The notes below the pieces were generated by a model. The model worked only from the letters and a program-made list of their open reading frames with translations. It did no database searches and had not been told where the DNA came from. From NCBI RefSeq assembly GCF_001663375.1, contig NZ_LCTF01000002.1:1-64000 (forward strand): a stretch of DNA of 64,000 nt, given 5' to 3'. Source of the DNA: Caldivirga sp. MU80 (GTDB taxonomy: Archaea; Thermoproteota; Thermoprotei; Thermoproteales; Thermocladiaceae). Positions 8,420-11,409 of the stretch are shown piece by piece. The stretch's first letter is position 1. Each line of letters starts with the position of its first letter. Both the position numbers and the translations under genes were made by a program.

Positions 8420-9145
8420 CTACTCAATTGTGTATATCACGTCGAGGGTTGCCCCATTAATCCTGTTCTTAACAGTCTTAACCACGTCCCTACTTGCAGC
8501 CACCAGTATTGATACACCCACTAGGCTTGCCCCAGCCTGCCTTATTATGCTAAGGAGGGCATCCACAGTCCTACCTGACCTCACTATGTCATCCACTATT
8601 ATCACCGAGTCCTCCTTAGTCAAGAGTAGTCTAGGTATGTATAGGCTAACCTTCCTGGGGGGTGAGTCAGCCATGTATGCGGCCTCGTAGTGCTGCTCAA
8701 AGCCTGCATCCATGTACTGCTTAGCTATGGTTAAACCAGCGTTTAAGGCGTATGAAGCCGCCATGGCCAGTGGAATGCCGTCTACGGCGGCTGTTAGAAC
8801 CCTGGTTACCCTTAACCCCGAGAAGACCTCAAGTATGTGCCTCTCGTAGAGTTTAAGCACCGTGGGGTTTAGGACTATTGAACTTAGGTCTATGTAATTG
8901 CTGTTAACCTTAATCAGCCTTGAAACGACATTCCTAATGTCTGCCATGGGCCTAAGCGCCTTGACTATATCAGCCGCAGCCTTGGCTGATGGTAAAACCT
9001 CCATGTTGGCGTAGCGGCATAGTGTGGATTCAGGTATCTTAAGCATACTAGCCAATTGCTTAAACGACAGCGAGTAAATGCCCCTAACGGCATTTATGTA
9101 GAATACGGCATCCAACTGCAGATTAATCCTCTCCCTCCTCATCAT
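8420..9145 (-). CDS. HTH-phosphoribosyltransferase transcriptional regulator (PyrE-like, GfcR type)
   Basis: A 241-residue protein with an N-terminal helix-turn-helix (about 12-55, FKQLASMLKIPESTLCRYAN) and a C-terminal type I phosphoribosyltransferase fold. The PRPP loop VIIVDDIVRSGRTVD is clear at about 198-212. Such fusions of HTH and orotate-PRTase-like domains act as archaeal regulators that sense PRPP or nucleotides, for example GfcR in haloarchaea. It is encoded beside the pyrIED operon with the tRNA half between, so pyrimidine or purine control is plausible but inferred. The tandem ATGs at 9145 and 9142 are both possible starts. Confidence 0.85.
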   Translation of the reverse strand: MMRRERINLQLDAVFYINAVRGIYSLSFKQLASMLKIPESTLCRYANMEVLPSAKAAADIVKALRPMADIRNVVSRLIKVNSNYIDLSSIVLNPTVLKLYERHILEVFSGLRVTRVLTAAVDGIPLAMAASYALNAGLTIAKQYMDAGFEQHYEAAYMADSPPRKVSLYIPRLLLTKEDSVIIVDDIVRSGRTVDALLSIIRQAGASLVGVSILVAASRDVVKTVKNRINGATLDVIYTIE

Positions 9146-9202: not shown

Positions 9203-9211
9203 GCTTAAAAA
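9203..9211 (+). promoter_or_regulatory. TATA box of the split-tRNA transcript
   Basis: The sequence gcttaaaaa lies about 25-30 bases before the GG at 9233 that begins the leader of the tRNA half. It resembles a crenarchaeal stable-RNA promoter and shows that the 3' half has its own transcription start. Confidence 0.6.
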
Positions 9212-9232
9212 CTAGGCTAGACGTAGGTTACT

Positions 9233-9302
9233 GGTGGTCGGCGCCGGCTAAGGTGGGCCTTTCGAGCCCGTGACCCGGGTTCAAATCCCGGCCGGGGCAC
9301 CA
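9233..9302 (+). tRNA. 3' half of a split (trans-spliced) tRNA-Glu (anticodon UUC)
   Basis: Bases 9254-9302 form a perfect 3' portion of a tRNA. The anticodon arm TGGGC/GCCCG has loop CTTTCGA, so the anticodon is TTC (Glu). A 4-base variable loop is followed by T-arm CCGGG-TTCAAAT-CCCGG, acceptor strand CCGGGGC, discriminator A and encoded CCA. The 5' acceptor strand should read GCCCCGG followed by a D-arm, but the 26 bases upstream (ttactggtgg...) pair at only about four of seven positions and form no D-arm. Instead there is a GC-rich leader, 9233-9253, directly after a TATA box. This is the layout of 3' half genes joined near nucleotides 25/26 in Caldivirga. No 5' half was found in this window. 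Confidence 0.85.
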
Positions 9303-9338: not shown

Positions 9339-10388
9339 CTAACTAAGTTTACCTCCCGGGTCAGGTATTGGGAACAATTGCCAGGAATCCCTCCTAGGGT
9401 TATTCAACGTGTTTAGTTGTCTTTGTGTAATTAGTTTCCTAAGTTCATTAACCACCCTGTAGACGGATAACGGCCCCTCCATGGCGAAGGCGGTCACCAT
9501 GCCCACCAGGTCAGCCCCTGCCTCTAGGCCCCTTAAGACATCACCTCCGCTCATGAATCCACCTAGGCCTATGATCAACCCGCCATACCCCATGCCTCTG
9601 GTTAATTTAATGAGCCTGGTAACTATTTTAAGCAGTGGCGCCCCACTTACCCCACCGTAGCCCACAGGTAAGTCTGACTTTACCATTATGGTGTTTGCTA
9701 TTGTTAGGCCAAGGGGGTTATGGTTGATTATGGTTTTAAGCACCTTAACCTCATCATTAACGTTGGGCAGTAGGGGTACCTTAACCACCACCTTATCGTG
9801 TCTCTTAAGTAATCTTAGCAGGTTACTGAGTCTCTGGGGTTCGACCCATGATCCGCCGTATGTTGGGCTACTCACGTTAATCTCTATGAAGTCCACGCAG
9901 CCTAGGTAGGGGGTTAGTGAATCAAGCATTATTTTAAACTCTACTTCGCTAAAGCCCGCTAGGCTAATGCCCAGTAGCTTACCCCTGGGCCACCTTGGGC
10001 ACTCGCCATTAAGCACCTCCCTTATGAACCAGAACCCCCTTGACGGAAGCCCCATGGCGTTCACCATGGCCTTTAACCCAGGGTACCTCCTCATCCTCGG
10101 CCTTGGGTTACCCCGCCTTGGCCTAAGGGTTACTGAGCCGATGGTGTGGAAGCCTACGGGTAGGTTGGCCATTAGGCCTACCAGTAGGCCATCCTTATCA
10201 ACGCCAGCCCCAATACCCACTGGAGAGTCGAGAACCCTATTAACCAGCCTAGGCCTATAGGGGAGGTTACCCATTAACTTAGTTAAAACCCTCATCGCAG
10301 CTCTAACTGGGTATGTCCTTAGGATTAGGTTGGATGCATCGTGGGTTAGGTCTGGTGGTAGGTAGGCTAGGGGCTGGTTAAGCAGCAT
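9339..10388 (-). CDS. pyrD: Dihydroorotate dehydrogenase
   Basis: A 349-residue FMN TIM-barrel protein of the dihydroorotate dehydrogenase family, catalysing the fourth step of pyrimidine synthesis. The FMN and substrate loops are visible: VGIGAGVDKDG at about 56-66, GSVTLRPRRGNPRPRMRR at about 84-101, EINVSSPTYGG with a Ser base position at about 170, and the phosphate-binding GLGGFMSGGDVLRGLEAGAD near 270-290. The layout resembles class 2-like or archaeal single-subunit enzymes. Its start overlaps the pyrE stop by 11 bases, so it is the last gene of a pyrI-pyrE-pyrD operon. Confidence 0.9.
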   Translation of the reverse strand: MLLNQPLAYLPPDLTHDASNLILRTYPVRAAMRVLTKLMGNLPYRPRLVNRVLDSPVGIGAGVDKDGLLVGLMANLPVGFHTIGSVTLRPRRGNPRPRMRRYPGLKAMVNAMGLPSRGFWFIREVLNGECPRWPRGKLLGISLAGFSEVEFKIMLDSLTPYLGCVDFIEINVSSPTYGGSWVEPQRLSNLLRLLKRHDKVVVKVPLLPNVNDEVKVLKTIINHNPLGLTIANTIMVKSDLPVGYGGVSGAPLLKIVTRLIKLTRGMGYGGLIIGLGGFMSGGDVLRGLEAGADLVGMVTAFAMEGPLSVYRVVNELRKLITQRQLNTLNNPRRDSWQLFPIPDPGGKLS

Positions 10389-10917: not shown

Positions 10918-11409
10918 TTACCTTTCACCTGCCAATTGCGCGTTGATGTCATCTATGGTTAAGTATGTTCCGCAGTATAGGCACTGCAGGAGTGGTTGAT
11001 CACTGCGGATAACCTTAAACGTGGCCACGGCGTCCTCCCTGGGCTGATTGGTTATGCACCTGGGGTTTCTGCACTTAACAACACCCTTAACTGCGTCAGG
11101 TAGCTTAACCTGGAACTTCTTAATCACTGCGTAATCCTTAATCACGTTTATGGTGGCTGTTGGGGCTATTAGGGATATTAAGTTGAGTTCATCATCACCC
11201 AGCTCCTTACCCTCAATCTTAACTATGTCCTTCCTACCTAGCCTACGGCTCTCAACATTCATGACAAGTGCAATCCTTCCCTCACCGCCCCTTAACCTAA
11301 GAACCCTAAGCACCATTAAGGCCCTCCCAACGGGTATGTGGTCTATGACTATTCCATCCCTAATCTTACTAACTATGAGTTCCTTACCCTTAACCTCAGT
11401 TGACATCAT
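10918..11409 (-). CDS. pyrI: Aspartate carbamoyltransferase regulatory chain
   Basis: A 163-residue protein matching PyrI. It has an N-terminal allosteric nucleotide-binding domain ([18 protein letters not shown] and [12 protein letters not shown]) and a C-terminal zinc domain with four cysteines (CRNPRC ... CLYC). It binds the catalytic PyrB subunit and transmits CTP/ATP control. The gene for PyrB is not in the window, so the usual pyrBI pairing is broken here. It is the first gene of the operon with pyrE and pyrD. The start ATG-ATG at 11409/11406 is ambiguous by one codon. Confidence 0.93.

What the first reader, a model, noticed from the sequence alone, without database searches (positions are those of the whole stretch)
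9203..9302. Separate gene for the 3' half of tRNA-Glu(UUC)
The tRNA is complete from the anticodon stem to CCA, but the 5' acceptor and D-arm are missing, replaced by a GC-rich leader directly after its own TATA box. This matches trans-spliced tRNA halves, known from Nanoarchaeum equitans and Caldivirga maquilingensis, with the join at about nucleotide 25/26 so that the D-arm comes from another transcript. The leader 9233-9253 should pair with the trailer of the missing 5' half and form a bulge-helix-bulge for the splicing endonuclease.
Basis: partly seen in the sequence, partly recalled or inferred. Interest (0 to 1): 0.88.

Follow-up and report, generated by a model that had tools for sequence, protein, structure and literature searches.

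The report
Trans-spliced split tRNA-Glu(UUC), 3' half
The window holds the back half of a glutamate transfer RNA that has to be joined to a front half made from another gene on a different contig; this oddity is already known from the close relative Caldivirga maquilingensis, and here it is found again, with the matching front half and a compensatory base change between species.

Summary
Window 9253-9302 is tRNA-Glu(UUC) from position 26 to CCA. A 21-nt leader (9232-9252) precedes it, 24 bases after a TATA-like CTTAAAAAC. The predicted 5' half exists in the same genome (G000:C68:26079, minus strand): GCCCCGGTAGTATAGCCCGGTCAAGTAT plus the trailer A-CGGCGCCGACCACCA, whose last 15 nt are the exact reverse complement of 9232-9246. 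Joined at 25/26 the halves give a complete tRNA-Glu(UUC), identical to continuous genes of other genera in the family. No other tRNA-Glu(UUC) was found in the genome.

Both halves are conserved in three further genomes of the genus. One leader/trailer pair changes C-G to U-A on both sides, which supports pairing in trans. Two tRNA splicing endonuclease subunits and RtcB are encoded.

It is not new in kind: split tRNA-Glu(UUC) is published for Caldivirga maquilingensis, which G001 very probably is. This is an ortholog in another Caldivirga genome.

In passing: tRNA-Arg(UCU), continuous in G001, is interrupted here by about 190 bases with its own TATA-like site, a candidate recent split; tRNA-Ala genes split in G001 are continuous here with cis introns.

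The parts
9204..9212 (+). TATA-like element CTTAAAAAC, centred 24 bases upstream of the leader helix
   Evidence: Sequence. A similar TTTAAAAACC or TTTATAAACC lies at about the same place in L046, L047 and L090. Promoter function is inferred.
9232..9246 (+). Leader helix strand TGGTGGTCGGCGCCG, exact 15-nt reverse complement of the 5' half's trailer
   Evidence: duplex -35.2 kcal/mol; one compensatory C-G to U-A pair between species
9247..9252 (+). GCTAAG: 3' strand of the short central helix plus the intron side of the 3' splice-site bulge (relaxed bulge-helix-bulge)
   Evidence: Co-fold of the two halves; the same CTAAG precedes the 3' exon in the cis introns of tRNA-Glu(CUC) at C82 and tRNA-Asp(GUC) of this genome
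9253..9302 (+). 3' exon of tRNA-Glu(UUC), nt 26 to CCA, anticodon 9261-9263
   Evidence: 50 of 50 bases identical to the 3' part of continuous tRNA-Glu(UUC) genes in other genera of the family

Best explanation
The locus is the 3'-half gene of a trans-spliced tRNA-Glu(UUC), and the only source of that tRNA found in the genome. The half is transcribed from its own promoter from about 9232. The 5' half (G000:C68:26079 downward, minus strand) is transcribed from its own TATA-like site. Leader and trailer pair over 15 bp and bring the halves together into a relaxed bulge-helix-bulge. The two-subunit crenarchaeal tRNA splicing endonuclease cuts after U25 in the 5' half and before G26 in the 3' half, and RtcB joins the exons into a normal tRNA-Glu(UUC). 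Shown here: both halves, the complementarity, the compensatory change, no other tRNA-Glu(UUC) found, the identity of the joined product to continuous orthologs, and genes for the enzymes. Inferred: transcription of the halves, cleavage and ligation.
For: 5' half with a trailer that is an exact 15-nt reverse complement of the leader (about 0.004 exact 15-mers expected by chance in the whole genome, and this one abuts a tRNA-Glu 5' half). Co-fold shows helix, 3-nt bulge, 3-bp central helix and a second bulge, -73.3 kcal/mol. Joined sequence is called tRNA-Glu(ttc) by ARAGORN; the half alone is not. Joined sequence is identical to continuous genes in L049, L052 and L054. Both halves found in G001, G002 and G003, and the 5' half in G004. 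Compensatory pair: C-G in G000, U-A in G001-G003. The genome-wide tRNA scan and BLAST with the half give no other UUC copy. Two PF01974 endonuclease genes and RtcB. Split tRNA-Glu(UUC) is reported for C. maquilingensis (PMC4390854).
Against: No RNA data for this organism. The compensatory change is probably a single evolutionary event. The genome is a draft (86 contigs, 94.5% complete, 1.3% contamination), so a complete tRNA-Glu(UUC) could lie in a missing part, though three sister genomes keep the same two halves. The central helix is 3 bp plus an A-A mismatch, not the strict 4 bp.
Confidence: 0.96

Rival explanations
1. A broken tRNA pseudogene or an attachment-site remnant left by an integrated element.
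For: tRNA 3' ends are often integration sites. The bases after CCA differ in every relative, and incomplete tRNA-Asp copies lie at the ends of two contigs of this assembly.
Against: Leader, TATA-like site and exon are conserved in three other genomes, the exon has no damage, a perfectly complementary 5' half exists, and no other copy of this tRNA was found. Pyrimidine genes and a regulator-like gene flank it, with nothing recognised as an integrase among the ORFs of 100 aa or more at 6.5-12.5 kb (read by eye).
Confidence: 0.02
2. An intact tRNA-Glu(UUC) exists in the unassembled 5% of the genome and the two halves are non-essential relics.
For: The assembly is a draft, completeness 94.48%.
Against: G001, a closed 2.08-Mb genome, shows the same two halves, and all its GCCCCGG-type tRNA 5' ends read Glu(CUC), Asp or His apart from the 5' half. 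Relics would not be expected to keep 15-18 bp of leader/trailer pairing.
Confidence: 0.02

Closest known systems
Split tRNA-Glu(UUC) of Caldivirga maquilingensis (Fujishima et al. 2009, as summarised in PMC4390854 and PMC4033280)
   Same: Same tRNA, same genus. G001 (closed, 2,077,567 bp, with one tRNA-Ala 5' half and two tRNA-Ala 3' halves, as published for C. maquilingensis) carries both orthologous halves with the same exons and the same join.
   Different: A different Caldivirga genome; one leader/trailer pair is C-G instead of U-A, and the perfect helix is 15 bp instead of 18. The original paper was not held, so its sequences were not compared directly.
Split tRNA-Glu(UUC)/(CUC) of Nanoarchaeum equitans (Randau et al. 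2005, from PMC4390854)
   Same: Two-gene tRNA with complementary ends, joined by the splicing endonuclease.
   Different: There both tRNA-Glu share one 3' half. Here tRNA-Glu(CUC) is a continuous gene with a cis intron and only UUC is split.
Split tRNA-Asp(GUC) and tRNA-Lys(CUU) of Desulfurococcales (Chan et al. 2011, PMC3218864)
   Same: Crenarchaeal split tRNAs with complementary ends.
   Different: Other tRNAs; their halves lie adjacent or relatively close, whereas here they lie on different contigs.

Membership tests
Archaeal split (trans-spliced) tRNA | 5' and 3' halves encoded at separate loci, each with its own promoter | tested here: met
   C25:9232-9302 and C68:26079 downward, each with a TATA-like element upstream; promoter activity itself not testable here
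Archaeal split (trans-spliced) tRNA | Complementary leader and trailer at the junction | tested here: met
   15 perfect bp here, 15-18 bp in sister species, one compensatory change
Archaeal split (trans-spliced) tRNA | Bulge-helix-bulge motif at the junction | tested here: met
   Relaxed form: 15-bp helix, 3-nt bulge AUA, 3-bp central helix AGU/GCU plus A-A, second bulge
Archaeal split (trans-spliced) tRNA | Joined sequence is a normal, otherwise missing tRNA | tested here: met
Archaeal split (trans-spliced) tRNA | Two-subunit splicing endonuclease and ligase present | tested here: met
   PF01974 at C81 and C83, RtcB at C63
Archaeal split (trans-spliced) tRNA | Joined RNA detected in cells | not testable with these tools
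   No RNA data
Ortholog of the C. maquilingensis split tRNA-Glu(UUC) | Same split position and same upstream context in that species | tested here: met
   G001: both halves, same 25/26 join, conserved upstream sequence. That G001 is C. maquilingensis is inferred from genus, genome size and its split tRNA-Ala set.

The most novel reading that the evidence does not exclude
Within the genus Caldivirga, splitting of tRNA genes is in flux. tRNA-Glu(UUC) is split in every member where both halves could be checked, and in one of them (G003) the 3' half also carries a cis intron. tRNA-Ala is split in G001-G003 but intron-bearing in G000 and apparently G004. tRNA-Arg(UCU) has become split in tandem only in G000, by an insertion with a promoter-like site into the loop of an intron whose flanks resemble one in a genome of another family (G032). 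This would show a split tRNA arising directly from an intron-bearing gene.
Probability: 0.45. Interest if true: 0.6.

Novelty: new member of a known kind. Interest (0 to 1): 0.35.

Why it matters
It shows that the split tRNA-Glu(UUC) is not a quirk of one strain but a trait shared across the genus, with pairing between two distant loci kept by a compensatory change, while other genera of the family keep the same tRNA in one piece. With the variable tRNA-Ala and tRNA-Arg genes, the genus becomes a natural series for the intron-first versus split-first question.

Tried and rejected
Pseudogene or attachment-site remnant: rejected (paired 5' half, conservation). tRNA-Glu genes at C82 and C47 as alternative UUC copies: rejected, both read CUC and have cis introns in the D-arm region, at 25/26 in C82. 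C74/C81/C30 copies are tRNA-Asp(GUC); C68:3632 and C22 are tRNA-His. A second Arg(UCU) 3' part on C9: 97% identical to G032, a genome of another family, so probably a co-binned foreign contig. The genome-contig scan gave one named hit, Caldivirga sp. UBA161. The primary C. maquilingensis paper is not held. A related-loci run with a wrong frame failed and was not needed.

Full report
Observation. The window is contig C25 of a 2.26-Mb archaeal draft genome. At 9253-9302 lies GTGGGCCTTTCGAGCCCGTGACCCGGGTTCAAATCCCGGCCGGGGCACCA, which is tRNA-Glu(UUC) from position 26 through the CCA end. No 5' acceptor strand or D-arm precedes it. Instead there is TGGTGGTCGGCGCCG-GCTAAG (9232-9252), and 24 bases before that a TATA-like CTTAAAAAC (9204-9212). 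ARAGORN sees no tRNA here and Rfam only a marginal, distorted hit.

The missing half. A pattern search of the same genome for tRNA-Asp/Glu-type 5' ends gave six places. Four belong to continuous genes reading Glu(CUC) (C82, C47) or His (C22, C68:3694), and one to tRNA-Asp(GUC) (C74). The sixth, C68:26079 on the minus strand, reads GCCCCGGTAGTATAGCCCGGTCAAGTAT followed by A-CGGCGCCGACCACCA and no 3' half. CGGCGCCGACCACCA is the exact reverse complement of window 9232-9246. About 0.004 such 15-mers are expected by chance in the whole genome, and this one sits exactly at the exon end.

The junction. Co-folding gives acceptor-strand pairing, the 15-bp leader/trailer helix, a 3-nt bulge AUA, a 3-bp central helix and a second bulge, at -73.3 kcal/mol. 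Cutting each bulge after its second base joins U25 to G26 (inference from the known endonuclease rule). The product is 78 nt and ARAGORN calls it tRNA-Glu(ttc). It is identical to continuous tRNA-Glu(UUC) genes in other genera of the family (L049, L052, L054). This fixes the join at 25/26 without ambiguity, because the bases next to the exon differ on both sides.

Conservation and covariation. Three same-genus genomes have both halves and a fourth (67% complete) has the 5' half. G000 and G004 trailers read CGGCGCCGACCACCA; G001-G003 trailers read CGGCGCCGATCACCA. The leaders change to match: TGGTGGTC in G000, TGGTGATC in G001-G003. Perfect pairing is kept at 15, 18, 15 and 16 bp in G000, G001, G002 and G003. 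Pairing the G000 trailer with the G001 leader leaves a mismatch and costs 4.7-6.7 kcal/mol; the reverse combination keeps a G-U pair and costs less. The sequence upstream, toward the regulator-like gene at 8420-9145, is conserved too.

No other copy. The whole-genome tRNA scan and BLAST with the half found no further UUC gene. The genome encodes two tRNA splicing endonuclease subunits, as expected for the broad-specificity heterotetramer of Crenarchaea (PMC6379350; PMC3218864), and RtcB.

What is known. Split tRNA-Glu(UUC) is one of the published split tRNAs of Caldivirga maquilingensis (PMC4390854; see also PMC4033280). G001 is a closed genome of 2,077,567 bp with one tRNA-Ala 5' half and two tRNA-Ala 3' halves, as described for that species, so it is very probably C. 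maquilingensis. The scan of named genomes gave Caldivirga sp. UBA161, at coordinates that fit G002. The window is therefore an ortholog of a known gene in another Caldivirga genome: a new member of a known kind.

Beyond the finding. tRNA-Ala genes that are split in G001-G003 are continuous with cis introns in G000. tRNA-Arg(UCU) is continuous in G001 and G003 and has a cis intron in the anticodon region in G002. In G000 it is interrupted by about 190 bases: 5' part at C2:9750, 3' part ending at 10016, each with a TATA-like site, and with complementary flanks. The flanks resemble the short intron of the same tRNA in G032, a genome of another family. This may be a split in the making or a very long intron; RNA end mapping would decide. 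In G003 the Glu(UUC) 3' half also has an intron of about 21 nt in the anticodon loop, so that tRNA would need both trans- and cis-splicing. In G000, tRNA-Glu(CUC) and tRNA-Asp(GUC) carry near-identical introns at 25/26 that are absent in G001-G003, consistent with the tRNA-intron transposition reported for Thermoproteales (PMC4033280).

Noticed in passing
G000:C2:9750-10016 (L094, L166): tRNA-Arg(UCU) is interrupted in or next to the anticodon stem by about 190 bases containing a TATA-like site; the flanks TCCGCGGGG and CCCCGCGGA are complementary. It is continuous in G001 and G003. Candidate tandem split tRNA, or a very long intron.
   Followed up: partly
L090 (G003:C7, about 11055-11146): The 3' half of split tRNA-Glu(UUC) in G003 also contains an intron of about 21 nt in the anticodon loop, so this tRNA would need trans- and cis-splicing.
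   Followed up: partly
G000:C79:20205, C81:21367 versus G001:C1:392772, 394187, 95910: tRNA-Ala genes are split in G001-G003 but continuous with cis introns in G000 and apparently G004.
   Followed up: partly
G000:C82:417-515 and C74:45-142: tRNA-Glu(CUC) and tRNA-Asp(GUC) carry near-identical introns at 25/26 (GTGGGTTCACCCACCCTAAG, GTGGGTTATCCACCCTAAG), absent in G001-G003: apparent recent intron spread.
   Followed up: partly
G000:C83:79000-79094: 3' half of tRNA-Gly with leader, conserved in G001-G003 (88-93%), matching the split/tri-split tRNA-Gly of C. maquilingensis; the 5' parts were not looked for.
   Followed up: no
G000:C9:9480-9570: Arg(UCU) 3' part without its 5' exon, 97% identical to a genome of another family (G032): probably a co-binned foreign contig, possibly itself a tRNA fragment.
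   Followed up: partly
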